DNA of 64,000 nt from Alphaproteobacteria bacterium (GTDB taxonomy: Bacteria; Pseudomonadota; Alphaproteobacteria; Caulobacterales; Maricaulaceae), in NCBI GenBank assembly GCA_024742735.1, contig JANSXV010000002.1:372001-436000 (forward strand). Reading direction: 5' to 3'. Positions 56,152 through 64,000 of the stretch are shown here, piece by piece; the stretch's first letter is position 1, and every line of letters starts with the position of its first letter. The notes under the pieces were generated by a model. It was not told the DNA's origin and searched no databases. It saw only the letters and a program-made list of their open reading frames with translations. The position numbers and the translations under genes were made by a program.

Positions 56152-56325
56152 GACGGCGTCTCGCCTCCGCTCGGGTTAAGGGAATCAAGCCCATGGGCCT
56201 GATCAGGCGCGCCAGCCTAAGCCCGTGACACGGCCAGGCAAGCCGTCGGCGCTTGCCTTCGGTGCGGCGGCGCCGTAGCCGTGCCAGTCGTGGAGCGCCG
56301 TCGTGCGCATGAGGGGAGCCGCACC

Positions 56326-57279
56326 ATGAATTCGTCACCGCTGGTCGCCGTCGCATCGCGATCTTTTTCCCTGCATGCCGTGCTGGTGCCGGAGCTGCGG
56401 GCGAAGTTTCCCAATCTGCGCCTGAACGAAGCGGGCAAGTCGCTGGCCGGCGATGAGCTGGTCGAGCACCTCCAGGGCGCCGAACGCGCGGTGATCGCGC
56501 TGGAAAAGATCGACGCCTCGATCCTGTCACGCCTGCCGGACCTGAAGATCATCGGCAAGTACGGGGTGGGCCTGGACAATATCGACATGGCCGCGATGCG
56601 CGAACATGGCGTCAAGCTGGGCTGGACGGGCGGCGTGAACCGGCTGGGCGTCGCCGAGCTGGCGCTGGAGCTGATGCTGGGCGGACTGCGCAAGACCTGG
56701 GAGTCCCGCGAGCTGGCCGAAAATGGCGGCTGGGTCCAGATTCGCGGCCGTCAGCTCTCCGGCAAGACCGTCGGGATCATCGGTTTCGGCCATGTGGGCA
56801 AGGAAGTCGCGCGCATCCTTGCGCCGTTTCAGGTGCGAATTCTGGTCAATGACATCAAGGACGTGTCCGAGGCTGCGGCTGCGGCCGGCGCGGCGCTGGC
56901 TGAGAAGGATCAGATCTTCGCCGAAGCCGATGTGATCACCCTGCACACGCCCAAGACGGCGGACACCACGCGTATGATCGATGCGCGCGCCCTGTCCATG
57001 ATGAAGCCCGACGCCGTCGTGGTGAACACCGCGCGCGGCGGCCTGATCGACGAGCCTGCGCTTTATGCCGCGCTGACGGAGAACCGGATCGGAGCGGCGG
57101 CCATGGACGTGTTCGAGTCCGAGCCGCCGGGCGACAATCCGCTGATCAAGCTGACGAATTTCGCCGCAACGACCCATATCGGCGGCTCCTCGGAAGAAGC
57201 GGTCCTGAACATGGGCCGCGCCGCCATCGCCGGGCTTGAGAATGCGGTCGAGGCGCTGGAAGAGAATTTCTTCTCATGA
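56326..57279 (+). CDS. D-2-hydroxyacid dehydrogenase, phosphoglycerate-dehydrogenase-like
   Basis: NAD-dependent dehydrogenase of 317 residues. The nucleotide-binding motif is GIIGFGHVGKEVARIL, and the catalytic residues are present: Arg in NTARGGLID, Glu in DVFESEPPG and His in ATTHIGGSS. It lacks the C-terminal ACT and intervening domains of SerA, so serine biosynthesis is not implied. The start is the ATG at 56326, 7 bases after GAGGGGAG. It overlaps the next gene by ATGA. Its partners are an IMPase-fold phosphatase and a CMP-sugar synthetase, which suggests a part in building an unusual sugar acid (inference). Confidence 0.92.
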   Translation: MNSSPLVAVASRSFSLHAVLVPELRAKFPNLRLNEAGKSLAGDELVEHLQGAERAVIALEKIDASILSRLPDLKIIGKYGVGLDNIDMAAMREHGVKLGWTGGVNRLGVAELALELMLGGLRKTWESRELAENGGWVQIRGRQLSGKTVGIIGFGHVGKEVARILAPFQVRILVNDIKDVSEAAAAAGAALAEKDQIFAEADVITLHTPKTADTTRMIDARALSMMKPDAVVVNTARGGLIDEPALYAALTENRIGAAAMDVFESEPPGDNPLIKLTNFAATTHIGGSSEEAVLNMGRAAIAGLENAVEALEENFFS

Positions 57280-58046
57280 GTGATCTCGAGGCGCTGGCGG
57301 AGGCGGCCCTGACGGCGGGGGAGGCGGCCGGCGCGTATCTTCGCGGCCGCTTTGCAGAGGCCAGTATCGCCGAAGAGCGCCGCCGGGATGTGAAGCTGCT
57401 GGAGGATGCGCAGGCTGAGGCCATCATTCTTGAGCGGCTCGCCTCAACCGGTGTCCCCATATTCGCGGAAGAATCGGCCGAGCAGAGGCGCGAAGCGGCG
57501 CGTTCTGACCGGTTCTGGGTCGTCGACCCGCTGGACGGCTCGTTCAATTTCTCACGCGGCTTTGACCGCTGTGTCGTGTCCATCGGCCTGGTGGAGGCCG
57601 GCCGGCCGGTGCTGGGCGTGATCGTCGACTTCATGCGCGGCCAGGCTTTTGTCGGCATGTCAGGGTCGCCGGCTCGAGATCAAGACGGCGAGGCCGTTCG
57701 AGTGTCAGCTGTCGACCAGCTGAGCGAGGCTGCGCTCCTGACCGGCCTTCCAGCCCAGCGCGATTTTTCCCCCGCCTCCATGGAAGCGTTCTCACGAGGC
57801 CTTTCACGCGTGAAGAAGGTGCGCATGCTTGGCTCAGCCGCCAGCTCCTTGCTGCTCGTCGCGCGCGGCGTGTTCGACATCTATGTCGAGGACGACATCA
57901 TGATCTGGGACGTGGCCGCCGGCGCCGCGCTTGTTGAAGCGGCGGGCGGAGCGGTGCGGATGACCCAGTCCTCGCGGATCGAGGGTGCGGTTCGTCTGGT
58001 CGCAGCGGCTGATCAGAGGCTTATAGAAGACTACGACGCGGCCTGA
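57276..58046 (+). CDS. Inositol-monophosphatase-family enzyme
   Basis: Mg-dependent phosphatase of 256 residues. The metal site is visible at E65-E66 (FAEES), D84-P-L-D87-G-S and in IWDVAAGAALVEAAGG. The usual DGT is DGS here (DPLDGSFNFSRG), a conservative change. It is translationally coupled to the hydroxyacid dehydrogenase gene (ATGA) and its end overlaps the convergent CMP-sugar synthetase gene by 16 bases. The substrate is probably a phosphorylated sugar or polyol, but this cannot be fixed from sequence. It is distinct from hisN and cysQ elsewhere in the window. Confidence 0.9.
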   Translation: MSDLEALAEAALTAGEAAGAYLRGRFAEASIAEERRRDVKLLEDAQAEAIILERLASTGVPIFAEESAEQRREAARSDRFWVVDPLDGSFNFSRGFDRCVVSIGLVEAGRPVLGVIVDFMRGQAFVGMSGSPARDQDGEAVRVSAVDQLSEAALLTGLPAQRDFSPASMEAFSRGLSRVKKVRMLGSAASSLLLVARGVFDIYVEDDIMIWDVAAGAALVEAAGGAVRMTQSSRIEGAVRLVAAADQRLIEDYDAA

Positions 58047-58720
58047 GGGTCCTCGGCGAGACGCCGTTCCATCAGGTATTCGCAGAAGGCGAAGTCGTGC
58101 TCCTCGTCGATGTCGACGCTTTCCAGATGCGGGGTTTCGAAGAGCTTGGGGGCTTCGCCGACCCGGTGCTTGCGCTTGGCGAACCCTTCCCGGGTGAAGA
58201 TGTAAATGCACGAATTCTCCTCATAGACCGGCGGCAGGTGCTGGGTCGGAAGGAGCTCTGCAGGATCATGATTGATCGGCCGCCCGTCAGGCCAGTACAG
58301 CCGCGGCTGTAGCTTGGTGACCGAAAACAGGCTGTCATGGGCGCCGGGCTCGAAATAAGCGGCGACGGCGCGATCGATCGTATCGGCCTTCAGCAGCGGG
58401 TTCGTGCTGTGAGTCTGCAGGAAGATGTCGGCCTGCGAATGGGCGATCTGATGCTCAATGAGCGGATTCATGCTGACGAAATCCCCCTTGAGGGAGTCAG
58501 GCCTTCGCAGAATCCGCATCTCCGGGAAGAGCGAGCGCACAGTCTGCTCGATCCCGTCGTCGTCGGTCTCGACGCTGATGTCGGATATGCGGTCTGCGTC
58601 GCTGAGCGCCTTCAGAATCCAGTAGCAGCATGGCTTGCCCGCGAGCGGCCGGATATTCTTCCCCGGCACCCGCGAGGAATGCCCCTTCATCGAGATCAGC
58701 GCCGTCACCGCCTGGGTCAT
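58031..58720 (-). CDS. CMP-sugar synthetase (acylneuraminate cytidylyltransferase family)
   Basis: Activates a 2-keto-3-deoxy sugar acid with CTP. The 229-residue protein has the signature ISMKGHSSRVPGKNIRPLAG, 'VETDDDGIEQT', 'LQTHSTNPLLKADTIDRAV' and 'EENSCIYIFTREGF'. This matches the NeuA/PseF/LegF-type family more than KdsB. ATG 58720 follows AAGGACCGGGA. No neuB-like synthase or other nonulosonic acid gene is in the window, so the exact sugar is unknown. It is divergent from the giant glycosyltransferase-like gene and convergent with the phosphatase. Confidence 0.9.
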   Translation of the reverse strand: MTQAVTALISMKGHSSRVPGKNIRPLAGKPCCYWILKALSDADRISDISVETDDDGIEQTVRSLFPEMRILRRPDSLKGDFVSMNPLIEHQIAHSQADIFLQTHSTNPLLKADTIDRAVAAYFEPGAHDSLFSVTKLQPRLYWPDGRPINHDPAELLPTQHLPPVYEENSCIYIFTREGFAKRKHRVGEAPKLFETPHLESVDIDEEHDFAFCEYLMERRLAEDPQAAS

Positions 58721-58946
58721 TCCCGGTCCTTCCATGCCTATGCGAGCGTGATGCGATCTCAGCTTAAACCGCGGGCAAGTCAACCACGGCGGCCGTGTTT
58801 GGAACGGTCCGGCGTTTCGATGTCCCGTGGGCCATTGCCTGCCTTGTTGCGAATGCGTACAAGGCCACCGCGGACGCAGGCGTACACCGATTAATGCGCA
58901 GGGGATGTCCGGCTATCATGATTGTCTCGAGGGGGAAGTCACCGAC

Positions 58947-61900
58947 ATGACCGCTGCGTCGGCTGAAGCCAAACCGAAACCGGAAGCCGAAGCTCCCGAG
59001 CGCAAGCCGAAGGGGTTTTTCCGGTTCAAATCCGAAATGCCTCAGGAAGAGCTTTCCGCGCTCTGCGACACGCTGAGCGGCGCCTTTGAAATCGAAATCA
59101 GCCTCGAAGAAGCGCAGGCGGCGCAGGCCCGCATTCAGGCTTATGTGGAGTCCATGGACGGCCGCGTCGGTGAAGGTGTGGATGACCTCCTGGCGCTCTG
59201 GTTCGCTCGCCGGGCCGCAGCACTGAAAGCGATAGCGGAAAGCAAGTCGAAGGGCCGCCCCAAGGTCAACAGCTTCGAGATCGGGGCCCTGTTCGGCGGT
59301 AGCGGCGGCACATCGATAATGGCGGTGGAAGACCTGAAGGTCGCGCATCGGCTCGTCGTGATCGATCCCCTCGACGGGTATTACGGCCAACCGGTTGATC
59401 CGGTCACGGGCGCCTCGGTTGACCCAGAGACGCTGTCGCGCAATTTCGAGCGCGCCGGCGCCCAGCCGACCGACTACGAAATCGTTCAGGGTCTGTCTGA
59501 AGACCCGGAGATCATCGCCCGGGCGACCCGTCTCAAATACATGAGCGGGTATATCGACGGCGACCACACCCTCCTCGGCGTCCATAATGACTGGTTCCAG
59601 TACTCGCCGAGAATTCACGTCGGCGGCCTGTGCATCGTCGATAATTATAATGATCCCACCGCGGTCGAGGTGACGCATTTCGTCGATAACGTGGTGCTGA
59701 AGGAGCTGGCCGACTATTGGACGCCCGTCCTCACGCTTGGTCAGACCATCGTGTTGCGCAAGGACGCGGAGACGCCTCTGGAGCTGCATCGCCGGCTGGC
59801 GGGATCGGTCAATCTCGACGCCCTGAAAGCGAACATTCGCTGGCGCGATGAGGAGCTGAACAAGGTCACGCACGAGCTGACCGAGCGCCGCAAGCAGGTC
59901 CAGATCCGCAATGAGAAGATCGAGCGGATACAGTCAGAGGTGAAGCGCGTAGAAACCGAGCGCGACCTGATCGCCGAGAAGACGCGGTCTGAAGCCGCCA
60001 AGGAGTACGCGCCCAAGCTCGCTCACCTCGACAAGACGCTCGCTGAGCGCACCGCCGAACTCAAGGCGCTGCGCGGAGCGCATGACGCCGATAAGGATGC
60101 GCTTGAAACCGCCCGCATGAAGGCCCAGCGCCTCGAGACCGAGCTGAGCGACCAGGCGGCGCGGCTGTCCGAGCTGCAGGCTGAAAACAAGGCTGGCGCA
60201 GATCGGGTCAAGGCCCTGGAGCGCCAGGTCGAGGACGCGCAACGCAGCCGCGACGAAGAGCGCGCCGCCTTGAAGGAGGCCGAGGTCAAGATCAACCGCC
60301 TGCGCGACAAGGCCGGTACAGCGCGCTCGGAGCTCGACCAGGAGCTTTCTTCGATGCGGACCGCCCTGCACGAACGTGATCTGGAGCTGGCGCGCCTGTC
60401 CGAACGCCTTGAGGCGCGCGAGCGTGAGCTCGAAGGCGCCCGCCGGGATGAGGCTGCTGCCGAGACCGCGCTCGAGAAGGTCCGCGAGCGGGCTGACGCC
60501 CTGGATCGCCAGGTGCGCGACCAGGACGGCGTGATCCGTGAGCTTCAGTTCAAGGTGCAGCAGGCCGCTTACGAAGCCGAGCAGCATGCCGAAACGCGCG
60601 CCGCCCTCGAGGCCGTGCGGGCTGAGCTTGAAGCCGCACGTGAGAAGGCTTCGGCCTTGCGCGCCGAAAAAGTCGAAACCGAGGCCCGGCTGGCCGCCTT
60701 GCAGGGCGAACGCGACCGGCTAAGCGCCGAGCGCGATGCGCTCACTGAGAAGCTGTCCGAGACCGAAGGTCAGGCGAAGGATCTGTCCACCCGGCTGACT
60801 GAGCTTGACGCGCAGAACCGGCGGCTCGCCGAGGAGGCCAAGCGTGAAGCGGAGCGCGCCGGGGCGGCTGAAGCGGCGCTTCAGGAGCAACGTGAGGCGC
60901 TGTCCGCCGAGCGGGACGCTCTGCAGGACCAGCTGTCGGACTCCGAGCATCGGGCGGAGGATCTCTCCAACCGGCTGAGTCAGCTTGATGAGCAGCACCG
61001 GCGGCTCGCCGAGGAGTCGAAGCTTGAAGCGGAGCGCGCCGAGGAGGCTGAAGCGGCGCTTCAGGAGCAACGTGAGGCGCTGTCCGCCGAGCGGGACGCT
61101 CTGAAGGACCAGCTATCGGAGTCCGAGCATCGGGCGCTGGATCTGTCCAGTCAGCTCAGCCAGCTCGAGGCCCGCAATGGCCAGCTGGCCGCCGCAGTCG
61201 AGAACGAAGTCTTGCGGGCCGATCAGGCTGAAGCCGCGCTGCAGAGCGCGCGCGAGCGCCTCACGACGGTGTCTGAGGACGCCGAGTCCGCTCGCAGCGA
61301 GGTGCGCCGGCTTGAGCACCTGGTCAAGACCGGCTCAGGCGACCTGAGCGCCGCCCGTGCCGCGCTTGGCGCGGCTGAAGAGCGCGCTGAGGCGCTGAAT
61401 GCCGAGTTGCGCATGCGCAATGCCGATCTGGAGCGCCTGCGCAGCCAGGCTGCGGATTCCGAGGCCCGGGTCCGGTCGCTCGACGCTCTGAGGGCGGAAA
61501 GCGAAGCGCGTGTCGCGCAGAGCGCGGCGGACATGGCGCGTGCGCGTCAACGCATCACGTCGCTTGTGCAGGCCGACGACGCCAGAACGGCTGAACTGGC
61601 CAGGATTCGCCGTGAGCGTGATCAGGCCGCAAAGGCTCGCGACGAGGCGGCGGAAAAGACGCGCAAGGTGGAGTCCGACCTTCAAGGCTGGCGTCAGAAA
61701 GCCTCGCGCGCGACGCAGGAGGCTGACCAGACCCGTGCGGAAGCTGACGCCGCGCGCGAGCAGGCGGCCCAACTTGAGGCGCGGCTGCGCGTTCTTGAAG
61801 CCCAGCAGTCAGCGCCGCGGATCTTGCTGCGCAGGCTTCTGAAGTCTTCGGCTGTGCGGACGCTGCAGATTCTGGGGATGCAGGATACGGCTGCAAGGGT

Positions 61901-64000
61901 GCGCGGGCGCAAGGCGCTGTCGTCGGCGGCGCCGGCCATCCGGCCGTCACTGCCGCAGATTCCGCCGACGCCGGAAACCCATGATGCGGGCCCGCCGCAG
62001 CACGACCTCACTTTCTTCGTGAACTATACGTTCGGCGGCAAGACCCGTTACCTGCCGCGCACCGAGTTTCTCCGGCACACGCTGCGTTCCGGCCGCGCAA
62101 TGCGGGCGCTCAAGGGCGCTTTCAAGGGTGAGCGTTGCTTCGTGATCGGCAACGGTCCAAGCCTCAATCACCAGAATCTGAAGCAGCTCAAGAACGAGTT
62201 CACGATCGGGGCCAACTATATCTACATGAACGAGGAGAAGATGGGGTTCACCCCAACGCTGATCTCGTTCGCCAACTATCTGGTTATCCAGCAACGTCTT
62301 GACGAGATCCTTGGTCTCAAGGATTCGCTCCGCGTGCTGCCATACTATCTGTTCGATGACTTCGGGGCTCCGGACGAGACCGTGATCATCAACATGCAGC
62401 ACCAGACGCCGGAATTCTCGCTCGACGCGTCGTGCTATGCCTCCACTCAGAGCACGGTCACCTACGTCAATCTCCAGCTGGCCTATTATCTGGGGTTCGA
62501 CCAGGTCTGCCTGATCGGGGTCGACAATCGCTATATCCAGCCCGAGCGCGGCAAGGAAGGCACAGTCCTCACGCAGGAAGAAGACGATCCCAACCACTTC
62601 ACGCCCGCCTACTTCAAAGGGCTGAAGTGGCAGAAGGGCGACGAGGAGAAGATGGAGTCGCTCTACGCGCGGGCTCGCATCGCCTTTGAAGATCGCGGGT
62701 CCAAGGTCATCGACTGCACCTATAACGGCGCGCTGACGATCTTCGACAAAGGTGATCTGGACACCGTCGTGCGCCAGAAGCCTGCGCCGGCCCTGTCCAG
62801 CGTCGTCAAGGCCAAGGAGACTTTCCGCAATATCACCCGGGCGCCCCAGGAGTTCGAGCCCGAGACCGTGATCGTGACGATATCTCCCGATCTCGCAGAC
62901 GCGTTCGGTCACCACCTGAACATGGATCGGTTCCTCAGGGCCCAGGCCCATGCAGAGGGACAGGAACTCGTGTCTCTCTGCTCGATCAATGTCGAGCAGA
63001 CGCTCGCAGATCACAACAACTGGCTCGTTCCGGCCTTCTCGGTGAAGAGCTGGCACTCCCGGCTCGACGCCTCTGTCGTCGCACGCAAACAACGCAGGTT
63101 CGAAGCCGAGCTGCTCAAGGGCCTCGCGGTGGTCATGGAGGCCTTCGATCCCGGCGTCAGATTCGTTCTGTACATGTACACGGGCAATCTGCATCTGGGT
63201 AAAGTGCTGTCTGATGTCGCGGCCGGTTTCGACAATGTCGAGGCCCACATTCATCACTTCTACGCCGCCATGACCGACATGGAGGATGCCGGCGTGGTCG
63301 CTGAGTCCCGTGATCTCATCCACGATATCGAGAACCGCGGCGGCGAGCTGTATCTGGGAACGTATGATCTGGTCAGCTACTTCAAGCAGAAGACCGGATT
63401 CAAGCTGAACTATCTCGGCGATCCGTCGGTGACATTCGACGACGCTGAAGTGCAGGCCATGATCGATAACGGCTCCACTCCGCGCGATGGCCTGGTGGGA
63501 CCGGCCCGGGTGTTCTTCCCGCCGAACATGAATGTGGAGAAGGGCTACCGGACGGTGCTTGACGCGACCGAAGCGCTGCTGGCGTCCGATGAGCTGACGA
63601 GTGAATTCAAGCCGATCCTGCGCTATGTCCCTCGCGAGCACACGCCCGAGGCGCTGGTGCGCCGCGCCGAGGCGCTCAAGGACGCCAAGGGCGCTGAAGT
63701 CCTTGAGGGCGTGTTGTCGGACGACGACTTCAAATCGGTGACGCTGAGCGCGGACATCATCGCCATCACCTATACGGTCAAGGCCTTCAACCGGCGGATG
63801 TCAGGCAGCCTGACGGACGCGCTCATGACCGCCAAACCCATCGTGGCCACGCGCGGCACCTATGTGGGTGACCAGGTGGAGCGCTTCGGCTGCGGCGAGG
63901 TCTTCGACGAAGGCGACGTGGACGGTCTGATCGCGGGGCTGAAGAAGATCCGCGAAAACTACCGCAGCTATCACGAGGCCGCGATCGCCGCGCGCCGGAA
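58947..64000 (+). CDS. Giant multidomain protein: methyltransferase, coiled coil, Maf/MptE-like (DUF115) domain, GT4-like C-terminus (partial)
   Basis: One uninterrupted frame from the ATG at 58947 (after GAGGGGGAAG) to the window edge, at least 1684 residues. Order: a Lys/Pro/Glu-rich start; a class I SAM-methyltransferase of the Methyltransf_24 kind (motif I FEIGALFGGSGGTS at 110-123, YIDGDH at 202-207, GGLCIVDNYN near 225); a coiled coil of about 650 residues (about 300-960) rich in Glu, Arg, Ala and Leu; a proline-rich hinge; then a Maf/MptE-like (DUF115) domain with CFVIGNGPSLN (1064-1074), STQSTVTYVNLQLAYYLGF (1166 on) and LIGVDNRY. The last part (about 1600-1684), 'MSGSLTDALMTAKPIVATRG', resembles the donor-binding half of GT4 glycosyltransferases. 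A protein glycosylation role, as with flagellin Maf proteins, is inferred. Confidence 0.85.
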   Translation, partial: MTAASAEAKPKPEAEAPERKPKGFFRFKSEMPQEELSALCDTLSGAFEIEISLEEAQAAQARIQAYVESMDGRVGEGVDDLLALWFARRAAALKAIAESKSKGRPKVNSFEIGALFGGSGGTSIMAVEDLKVAHRLVVIDPLDGYYGQPVDPVTGASVDPETLSRNFERAGAQPTDYEIVQGLSEDPEIIARATRLKYMSGYIDGDHTLLGVHNDWFQYSPRIHVGGLCIVDNYNDPTAVEVTHFVDNVVLKELADYWTPVLTLGQTIVLRKDAETPLELHRRLAGSVNLDALKANIRWRDEELNKVTHELTERRKQVQIRNEKIERIQSEVKRVETERDLIAEKTRSEAAKEYAPKLAHLDKTLAERTAELKALRGAHDADKDALETARMKAQRLETELSDQAARLSELQAENKAGADRVKALERQVEDAQRSRDEERAALKEAEVKINRLRDKAGTARSELDQELSSMRTALHERDLELARLSERLEARERELEGARRDEAAAETALEKVRERADALDRQVRDQDGVIRELQFKVQQAAYEAEQHAETRAALEAVRAELEAAREKASALRAEKVETEARLAALQGERDRLSAERDALTEKLSETEGQAKDLSTRLTELDAQNRRLAEEAKREAERAGAAEAALQEQREALSAERDALQDQLSDSEHRAEDLSNRLSQLDEQHRRLAEESKLEAERAEEAEAALQEQREALSAERDALKDQLSESEHRALDLSSQLSQLEARNGQLAAAVENEVLRADQAEAALQSARERLTTVSEDAESARSEVRRLEHLVKTGSGDLSAARAALGAAEERAEALNAELRMRNADLERLRSQAADSEARVRSLDALRAESEARVAQSAADMARARQRITSLVQADDARTAELARIRRERDQAAKARDEAAEKTRKVESDLQGWRQKASRATQEADQTRAEADAAREQAAQLEARLRVLEAQQSAPRILLRRLLKSSAVRTLQILGMQDTAARVRGRKALSSAAPAIRPSLPQIPPTPETHDAGPPQHDLTFFVNYTFGGKTRYLPRTEFLRHTLRSGRAMRALKGAFKGERCFVIGNGPSLNHQNLKQLKNEFTIGANYIYMNEEKMGFTPTLISFANYLVIQQRLDEILGLKDSLRVLPYYLFDDFGAPDETVIINMQHQTPEFSLDASCYASTQSTVTYVNLQLAYYLGFDQVCLIGVDNRYIQPERGKEGTVLTQEEDDPNHFTPAYFKGLKWQKGDEEKMESLYARARIAFEDRGSKVIDCTYNGALTIFDKGDLDTVVRQKPAPALSSVVKAKETFRNITRAPQEFEPETVIVTISPDLADAFGHHLNMDRFLRAQAHAEGQELVSLCSINVEQTLADHNNWLVPAFSVKSWHSRLDASVVARKQRRFEAELLKGLAVVMEAFDPGVRFVLYMYTGNLHLGKVLSDVAAGFDNVEAHIHHFYAAMTDMEDAGVVAESRDLIHDIENRGGELYLGTYDLVSYFKQKTGFKLNYLGDPSVTFDDAEVQAMIDNGSTPRDGLVGPARVFFPPNMNVEKGYRTVLDATEALLASDELTSEFKPILRYVPREHTPEALVRRAEALKDAKGAEVLEGVLSDDDFKSVTLSADIIAITYTVKAFNRRMSGSLTDALMTAKPIVATRGTYVGDQVERFGCGEVFDEGDVDGLIAGLKKIRENYRSYHEAAIAARR
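60721..61260 (+). repeat. 180-bp tandem repeat inside the coiled-coil coding region
   Basis: Blocks starting at 60721, 60901 and 61081 align column for column at a period of exactly 180 bp (60 codons). Copies 2 and 3 are nearly identical over most of their length, copy 1 more diverged in its first half, and the third copy fades after about 61200. The shared core includes 'gcggctcgccgaggag' and 'cttcaggagcaacgtgaggc'. A multiple of 3 that keeps the heptad-rich pattern, it marks recent in-frame duplication of the coiled coil. Confidence 0.88.

What the first reader, a model, noticed from the sequence alone, without database searches (positions are those of the whole stretch)
58947..64000. Giant methyltransferase / coiled-coil / DUF115 / glycosyltransferase chain
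A single frame of over 1684 residues joins a SAM-methyltransferase, about 650 residues of coiled coil, a Maf/MptE-like DUF115 domain and a GT4-like region. DUF115 (Maf) proteins add nonulosonic acids to flagellin in other bacteria. A methyltransferase and a possible second glycosyltransferase on the same rod suggests an assembly in which a surface glycan is built and methyl-capped, the rod perhaps setting the distance between active sites. I know of no described protein with this exact order.
Basis: partly seen in the sequence, partly recalled or inferred. Interest (0 to 1): 0.85.

Follow-up and report, generated by a model that had tools for sequence, protein, structure and literature searches.

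The report
Giant glycan enzyme with coiled rod
An alphaproteobacterium encodes one very long protein that carries a methyl-adding cap at one end of a coiled-coil rod and sugar-adding modules at the other, which looks like a machine that builds a surface sugar chain and stops it at a set length.

Summary
The frame is open from window 58947 past the window end; the full protein is 1701 residues (stop at contig position 436052). It holds a methyltransferase, ~670 residues of coiled coil, a DUF115 (MptE-like) domain and a GT4-like region.

Best reading: a single-chain polymerase, ruler and terminator for a glycan exported by an ABC transporter, working like WbdD, WbbB and Klebsiella O7 ORF6. Support: the genome's only Wzt_C match is in an ABC-transporter gene 4.6 kb downstream. 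In 17 relatives of the same order the modules lie as sugar modules, coil, then a catalytic cap (Methyltransf_24 in 8, sulfotransferase in 6, another methyltransferase-like domain in 3). The window's methyltransferase belongs to the first cap family. Of 18 proteins found with that cap, 17 carry it C-terminally; only the window's has it N-terminally. Fourteen of the 18 lie near both Wzm- and Wzt-like genes.

The 'built and methyl-capped, rod sets distance' idea is supported; the flagellin link is not: flagellins and a pseudaminic-acid-like cluster lie on other contigs. Nothing was assayed; donor sugars are unknown. New variant of a known kind.

The parts
58947..64000 (+). The gene, cut by the window end; full ORF ends at contig position 436052 (52 bases past the window), 1701 aa
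59034..59771 (+). N-terminal cap: helical neck plus Methyltransf_24-type methyltransferase (residues ~30-275; EIGALFG, DPLDGYY, IDGDH motifs)
   Evidence: E 0.0014, below cut-off; 30-39% to each of 8 C-terminal cap methyltransferases
59805..61811 (+). Coiled-coil rod, residues ~287-955, about 99 nm if one straight rod at 0.1485 nm per residue (value recalled)
60773..61136 (+). 180-bp (60-residue) in-frame tandem duplication inside the rod, 91% matches
61809..61901 (+). Basic, leucine-rich segment at the rod/DUF115 junction, where relatives have hydrophobic segments; possible membrane contact, unproven (helical moment not outstanding)
62064..62801 (+). DUF115 / MptE-like domain (residues ~1040-1285), candidate CMP-sugar-using transferase
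62844..64000 (+). GT4-like region (residues ~1300-1701, last 17 residues outside the window)
58034..58783 (-). NeuA-like CMP-sugar synthetase (PF02348), divergent neighbour; 47-48% to those of L068 and L090, 26% to the one near the flagellin on C21
57276..58046 (+). Inositol-monophosphatase family protein, neighbour, possible sugar-phosphate phosphatase (inference)
56281..57279 (+). 2-hydroxyacid dehydrogenase, neighbour; a gene that reads like one also stands beside NeuA-like genes in L068, L073 and L135

Best explanation
A single-chain polymerase, ruler and terminator of an ABC-transporter-exported surface glycan. The C-terminal DUF115 and GT4-like modules extend a lipid-linked chain at the inner face of the membrane. 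When the free end reaches the far end of the ~100 nm coiled rod, the N-terminal methyltransferase O-methylates it; this stops growth and marks the chain for export by the Wzm/Wzt pair encoded downstream, whose Wzt carries a cap-reading type of C-terminal domain. Shown: the order of modules, the family of each, linkage to the transporter, and that the same cap family sits after long coils in relatives. Inferred: catalysis, the ruler effect, oligomer state, membrane contact, what is methylated, and that DUF115 uses a CMP-sugar.
For: Module order is that published for Klebsiella O7 ORF6 and resembles WbbB and WbdD (PMC11231755, first parts of sections 2, 11, 13). Cap family: profile A5 gives 18 of 398 order genomes at 193-345 bits and the next at 52 (9 of the 18 are rows of the profile; 82 of 398 match at E 0.001 or better, the other 64 at 52 bits or less); in the class sample the best of the other 384 genomes is 54 bits. 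In 17 of 18 the methyltransferase is C-terminal. Relatives run as sugar modules, hydrophobic segments, coil, cap: 16 of the 17 capped coil proteins first examined show two or more hydrophobic segments just before the coil, L037 one. Cap exchange: L101 and L090 are 85% identical over 1530 columns but end in a methyltransferase and a sulfotransferase. Transporter: both Wzm- and Wzt-like genes in 14 of 18 cap-methyltransferase loci; Wzt only in L139; none found in L101, L128, L144, which are cut or short contigs. The one Wzt_C match of the genome lies 5.6 kb after the gene's stop. Wzt_C at E 0.001 or better in 11 of 14 methyl-cap loci whose Wzt was scanned (4 of them over the curated cut-off) and in 0 of 3 sulfotransferase-cap loci. 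DUF115: of 78 stand-alone DUF115 loci 63 have a NeuA-like gene in the stretch held, up to 9 kb on each side; after MptE/HPPK the model's next fold match is human sialyltransferase ST8SiaIII.
Against: No assay. The window protein lacks the hydrophobic segments of its relatives and its junction helix has an unremarkable moment. The Trp that covers the methyl group in A. aeolicus Wzt (PMC9445017, passages) aligns with Arg in own Wzt, in a very weak alignment (E 0.15). In 9 of 21 giant-protein loci no Wzm/Wzt pair was found: all five same-genus ones (L033-L037), L126, and L101, L128, L136 on cut contigs. Three methyl-cap loci have a Wzt without a Wzt_C match (L135, L138, L140), and L127, which has no cap, has one. 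The rod is far longer than the ~20 nm given for WbdD (PMC5082667, passages). The GT region lacks the usual GT4 E-x7-E glutamates (motif recalled; alignment).
Confidence: 0.78

Rival explanations
1. Scaffold, not ruler: the coil only brings several enzymes together (or oligomerises them), and the methyltransferase decorates residues inside the repeat rather than capping the chain.
For: Several relatives carry an additional FkbM methyltransferase among the sugar modules, so methylation elsewhere in the chain is plausible in this protein family; rod lengths vary widely, 134-765 residues from the last hydrophobic segment to the cap motif.
Against: Where FkbM was found it sits on the sugar-module side, while the Methyltransf_24 cap is C-terminal in 17 of 17 relatives; a sulfotransferase replaces it on an otherwise 85% identical protein; transporter and Wzt_C linkage.
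Confidence: 0.15
2. Flagellin glycosylation enzyme of the Maf type: DUF115 moves a nonulosonic acid onto protein, the rest is auxiliary.
For: DUF115 is the Maf family (recalled; Maf papers seen only in the listing); a NeuA-like gene is adjacent and a NeuB exists in the genome.
Against: Flagellins are on contigs C21-C24, none on C19; the NeuB, another CMP-sugar synthetase and the rest of a pseudaminic-like cluster are near a flagellin on C21; the window's NeuA-like protein is only 26% identical to that one; linkage here is to Wzm/Wzt.
Confidence: 0.04
3. A fusion without a working rod function: cap and sugar modules joined by chance, or an assembly misjoin that created the N-terminal order.
For: The N-terminal cap order was found in no other protein (1 of 18); the genome is in 34 contigs.
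Against: 5.1-kb open frame, even codon-position GC, heptad periodicity through the rod; Klebsiella O7 ORF6, WbbB and WbdD have the cap at the N-terminal end too (PMC11231755).
Confidence: 0.03

Closest known systems
Klebsiella pneumoniae O7 ORF6 (PMC11231755)
   Same: One polypeptide: N-terminal methyltransferase terminator, coiled coil, C-terminal glycosyltransferase modules; ABC-exported glycan
   Different: O7 has a kinase and a carbohydrate-binding module and two GT2 modules; here Pfam finds no kinase, the methyltransferase is Methyltransf_24-like, and the modules are DUF115 and GT4-like
WbdD (E. coli O9a/O8; PMC3482155 and PMC5082667, passages)
   Same: Methyl terminator at the end of a coiled-coil ruler; the O8 form methylates a sugar hydroxyl directly without a kinase
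   Different: 708 aa with the coil region in 460-708 and a separate polymerase WbdA; here sugar modules are fused and the coil is ~670 residues
WbbB (Klebsiella O12; PMC11231755)
   Same: Polymerase, ruler and terminator in one chain, terminator N-terminal
   Different: Terminator is a Kdo glycosyltransferase, not a methyltransferase
Giant proteins of the same order, e.g. L101 Amphiplicatus metriothermophilus, L128-L133, L135, L137-L139, L141
   Same: Same cap methyltransferase family, coil, DUF115/GT modules in most; often gmd/fcl and Wzm/Wzt neighbours
   Different: Mirror order (sugar modules first, cap last) and hydrophobic segments before the coil
MptE/HPPK fold and Maf-type DUF115 (PF01973)
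   Same: Fold and GNGPS signature of the middle domain; structure search also finds sialyltransferase ST8SiaIII
   Different: Here part of a polymerase-terminator-like protein; the best-scoring named relatives are mostly stand-alone ~270-aa proteins of Chloroflexota

Membership tests
Coiled-coil polymerase-terminator proteins (WbdD / WbbB / O7 ORF6 class) | Terminator enzyme at the distal end of an extended coiled coil | tested here: met
   Methyltransferase residues ~104-250, coil ~287-955; activity not tested
Coiled-coil polymerase-terminator proteins (WbdD / WbbB / O7 ORF6 class) | Polymerase GT modules at the other end of the coil or recruited there | tested here: met
   DUF115 and GT4-like region C-terminal to the coil
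Coiled-coil polymerase-terminator proteins (WbdD / WbbB / O7 ORF6 class) | Linked ABC transporter Wzm/Wzt, with a cap-binding domain on Wzt | tested here: met
   ABC2_membrane and Wzt_C (E 6.4e-18) downstream; only Wzt_C match in the genome; methyl-pocket Trp not conserved in a weak alignment
Coiled-coil polymerase-terminator proteins (WbdD / WbbB / O7 ORF6 class) | Membrane-contacting element at the polymerase end of the coil | tested here: inconclusive
   No hydrophobic segment in own; basic leucine-rich segment with unremarkable moment; relatives have hydrophobic segments there
Coiled-coil polymerase-terminator proteins (WbdD / WbbB / O7 ORF6 class) | Coil length sets glycan chain length; cap stops growth | not testable with these tools
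   Needs mutants and glycan analysis
DUF115 / MptE-like (PF01973) | Profile match and fold | tested here: met
   33.7 bits (cut-off 34.6), 41.5 bits; model of this domain pLDDT 74-97 in blocks over residues 51-310, best fold hit 8sd5 HPPK
Maf flagellin glycosyltransferases | Linkage to flagellin and nonulosonic acid genes | tested here: not met
   Flagellins and the NeuB cluster are on other contigs; a NeuA-like gene is adjacent all the same
Methyltransf_24-type methyltransferases | Profile match and conserved motifs | tested here: met
   20.0 bits alone, below the cut-off of 26.3; 30-39% to 8 caps that pass it; EIG, DP, GYY, D-DH residues invariant in A5
GT4 glycosyltransferases | Profile match and E-x7-E motif (recalled) | tested here: inconclusive
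   Profile below cut-off alone, supported through homologous regions of L035/L036; E-x7-E not seen in the alignment

The most novel reading that the evidence does not exclude
The order holds a combinatorial family of giant glycan-assembly proteins in which sugar modules (DUF115, GT2, GT4, FkbM) and the terminal cap (two kinds of methyltransferase, a sulfotransferase) are exchanged on a coiled rod whose length itself varies from ~130 to ~770 residues and can grow by in-frame duplication. A sulfate cap would be a new kind of chain terminator, DUF115 a polymerase module, and the window's protein shows that the cap family can be attached to the rod in mirror orientation.
Probability: 0.5. Interest if true: 0.75.

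Novelty: new variant of a known kind. Interest (0 to 1): 0.62.

Why it matters
If true, a length ruler for surface polysaccharides that is known in detail from a few enteric serotypes exists in a distant order as exchanged modules, with caps (sulfate, two methyltransferase families) and rod lengths not described in the papers seen here. The natural series of rod lengths (134-765 residues in 17 relatives; ~670-680 here) and the near-identical pair L101/L090 with different caps would let one test directly whether rod length sets chain length and whether the transporter reads the cap.

Tried and rejected
Structure of the methyltransferase: AlphaFold with two sequences gave mean pLDDT 45.5; not used for a fold search. 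The GT4 half of the second model has mostly pLDDT below 50; only the DUF115 half is used, although the fold search was run on the whole model. Plasmids and phages with the methyltransferase: no match. Single-sequence search with the methyltransferase: own genome only among 61 relatives, own and one weak other among 385 class genomes; the profile A5 was needed. Flagellin/Maf reading: rejected. SMC/Rad50 hits of NCBIfam are coil similarity far below their cut-offs. Amphipathic helix at the junction: not convincing. Self-blast of the coil listed only the self match, although TRF finds the 180-bp duplication in the DNA.

Rows dropped before counts. One search prints Wzm 13 and Wzt 14 of 21; the Wzt hits in L033 and L034 (25-27%) were taken for other ABC ATPases and L136 has Wzm only, which leaves 12 of 21 with both. 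The gmd/fcl hits in L033-L037 (23-25%) are galE-like and not counted. Of the 20 giant-protein loci other than own, three are outside the '17 capped coil proteins': L127 (no cap, no clear coil), L040 (cut at its 5' end; no coil, hydrophobic segment or cap found) and L136 (cut at its 3' end by the contig). L139's Wzt, at the edge of the stretch, was not scanned. The sulfotransferase cap of L134 is below the Pfam cut-off (19.2 bits against 22) and was counted because it is 64% identical to that of L033. The third cap kind has no Pfam match at E 1 (L034 and L037) and is called methyltransferase-like only from reading its sequence; L037 and L126 are 84% and 59% identical to L034 there. VIA-align could not be run.

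Novelty searches: (capped listings). I saw no listed paper on a coiled-coil terminator with a sulfotransferase; PMC11231755 holds 'sulf' 0 times and 'DUF115' 0 times in its main text. PMC13171606 (E. coli capsules) holds both 'sulfotransferase' and 'coiled-coil' once each and was not read. PMC4483657 (passages) has a separate sulfotransferase-domain gene beside wzt and wbbB in Aeromonas salmonicida, unexplained there. Most subscription papers are not in the library. Papers: PMC11231755 first parts of sections 2, 11, 13 plus passages; PMC3482155, PMC9445017, PMC5082667, PMC4483657 passages only; others search listing only.

Full report
What is there. The window is contig C19, 372001-436000, of a 3.2-Mb genome in 34 contigs. 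One frame is open from ATG 58947 past the window end and stops at C19:436052, giving 1701 residues. The two other forward frames hold 54 and 74 stops and third-position GC is steady. Pfam places MptE-like (DUF115) at 1050-1197 (E 3.9e-8), GT4-type profiles at about 1522-1683 (E 0.0024, below cut-off) and Methyltransf_24 at 111-234 (E 0.032 whole, 0.0014 alone; below cut-off). Between them lie about 670 residues with heptad periodicity: power 17.5 at period 3.5 against at most 12.6 in 500 shuffles, and the best local period is 3.35-3.55 in 15 of the 16 windows that start between residues 251 and 881. The rod contains a 60-residue in-frame duplication, 91% matches. At 0.1485 nm per residue (recalled) it would be about 99 nm; for comparison WbdD's reach is given as about 20 nm and ROCK2's coil as 107 nm (PMC5082667, passages).

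Relatives. With the C-terminal part as query, 10 of 61 genomes match, own included, among them very long proteins of the same genus; four of these (L033-L036) stand beside a galE-like gene, with a folD-like gene near (read from the translations). A scan of named genomes with a DUF115 alignment kept the best 80 of 581 relatives: 78 are stand-alone proteins of 254-304 residues, mostly from Chloroflexota by title, and 2 are giants, L101 (Amphiplicatus metriothermophilus, 2003 aa) and L090 (MAG RI_591, 1963 aa). In the order, 42 of 398 genomes have a PF01973 match; in 15 of them it lies in an open frame of 1400 aa or more.

Architecture. Of the 20 giant-protein loci other than the window's, 17 hold a protein with a coil and a catalytic-looking domain after it: Methyltransf_24 in 8, sulfotransferase in 6 (five over the Pfam cut-off, L134 below it but 64% identical to L033's), and in 3 (L034, L037, L126) a domain that reads like another methyltransferase but has no Pfam match. 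The others are L127 and L040 (no cap found) and L136 (cut by its contig). In 16 of 17 two or more hydrophobic segments lie between the sugar modules and the coil; L037 shows one. So the relatives run sugar modules, likely membrane hairpin, rod, cap. The rod from last hydrophobic segment to cap motif is 134-765 residues. L101 and L090 are 85% identical over 1530 columns but end in a methyltransferase and a sulfotransferase; L033 and L034 are 86% identical over 699 columns and end in a sulfotransferase and the third cap kind.

The window's methyltransferase is of the Methyltransf_24 cap family: blastp 30-39% identity to each of the 8 caps, with shared EIGxLFG, DP(L/F)xGYY and ID(G/A)DH motifs. 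A profile of the nine (A5) gives 18 of 398 order genomes at 193-345 bits (nine of them rows of the profile) and the next at 52; 82 of 398 match at E 0.001 or better, the remaining 64 being weak matches such as any methyltransferase of this type may give. In the class sample nothing but the window's own exceeds 54 bits among 385 genomes. In 17 of the 18 the domain is C-terminal; only the window's is N-terminal. In four of the 17 (L140, L143, L144, L145) a blastp with 11 module sequences found no sugar module, only the cap, with hydrophobic segment(s) nearer the N-terminus, as WbdD stands apart from its polymerase. The closest solved chains to the profile are 3ntv (MW1564 protein, E 5.8e-4) and 6g7d (Methyltransferase domain protein, E 6.6e-4); I recall 6g7d as a mycobacterial mannoside methyltransferase, which no call confirmed.

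Neighbourhood. Downstream lie gmd, fcl, a Wzm-like permease and a Wzt with the C-terminal domain PF14524 (E 6.4e-18), the only PF14524 match in the genome. Both Wzm- and Wzt-like genes are found in 12 of 21 giant loci (after dropping two ATPase hits taken for other transporters) and in 14 of 18 cap-methyltransferase loci, against 1 of 78 (Wzm) and 5 of 78 (Wzt) stand-alone DUF115 loci, which are mostly from another phylum and so only a rough yardstick. Wzt_C at E 0.001 or better was seen in 11 of 14 methyl-cap loci with a scanned Wzt (own, L129-L133, L137, L141-L143, L145; not L135, L138, L140), but only 4 of these pass the curated cut-off (own, L130, L141, L145); in 0 of 3 sulfotransferase-cap loci (L090, L125, L134); and, below cut-off, in L127, which has no cap. 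By hand, one-sided P for 11 of 14 against 0 of 3 is 20/680, about 0.03, if the loci were independent, which they are not (one search gave 0.033 for the first ten loci).

DUF115. The model of this part is good (pLDDT 74-97 in blocks over residues 51-310); Foldseek finds M. jannaschii HPPK (E 3.6e-5) and human ST8SiaIII (E 8.5e-4), a CMP-sialic acid enzyme. Of 78 stand-alone DUF115 loci, 63 have a NeuA-like gene; in L068 the order reads NeuB, a large protein, GT2, NeuA-like, hydroxyacid dehydrogenase, SDR, DUF115 (read from the translations). The window's gene has such a NeuA-like gene beside it, 48% identical to that of L068 and 26% to the one in the C21 flagellin cluster. A CMP-sugar donor is therefore the best guess; which sugar is unknown, since the only NeuB match in the genome lies in the C21 cluster.

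How it most likely works. [quoted passage not shown] The E. coli O8 form of WbdD methylates a sugar hydroxyl without a kinase (PMC3482155, passages), as would be expected here, where Pfam finds no kinase. Shown: order, families, linkage. Inferred: catalysis, ruler, export.

Against it. No hydrophobic segment in the window's protein. The Trp that covers the methyl group in A. aeolicus Wzt (PMC9445017, passages) aligns with Arg in own Wzt, in a weak alignment (E 0.15). No Wzm/Wzt pair was found beside five same-genus giants and L126. The GT region lacks the recalled E-x7-E residues. The N-terminal cap order has no second example in the order sample, so it cannot be checked by orthologues.

Verdict. 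Observation confirmed; glycan-building and capping idea supported; flagellin idea not supported; S-layer not tested; new variant of a known kind.

Noticed in passing
C19:450005-452122 (minus), L005: A second DUF115 protein 14 kb downstream: GT2, DUF115, then a hydrophobic stretch and a short helical tail (read from the translation).
   Followed up: partly
L033, L034, L035, L036 (same genus, beside a galE-like gene): One locus with giant proteins that share N-terminal or C-terminal parts but differ in sugar modules and cap: looks like a module-swapping hot spot.
   Followed up: partly
L042-L121 except L090 and L101: Stand-alone DUF115 proteins, mostly of Chloroflexota, with a NeuA-like gene in 63 of 78 loci; in L068 and L073 also genes that read like GT2, hydroxyacid dehydrogenase and SDR. 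Possibly an undescribed CMP-sugar pathway.
   Followed up: partly
L140:6024-9812, L143:9450-10859, L144:1674-3107, L145:8046-9530: Proteins with hydrophobic segment(s) and the cap methyltransferase, in which blastp with 11 module sequences found no sugar module; L140 has about 940 residues between its second hydrophobic segment and the cap match.
   Followed up: partly
G000:C21:67743-79430 (L146): Gene cluster that reads like pseudaminic-acid synthesis next to a flagellin, separate from the window locus.
   Followed up: partly
L036, L128-L134, L137-L139, L141: FkbM-type methyltransferase domains among the sugar modules of the giants, suggesting methylation within the chain besides the end cap.
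   Followed up: no
L004:11578-14624 (C19:442077-445123): NKWYS and Sulfotransfer_1 genes downstream of Wzt; the glycan may also be sulfated.
   Followed up: no
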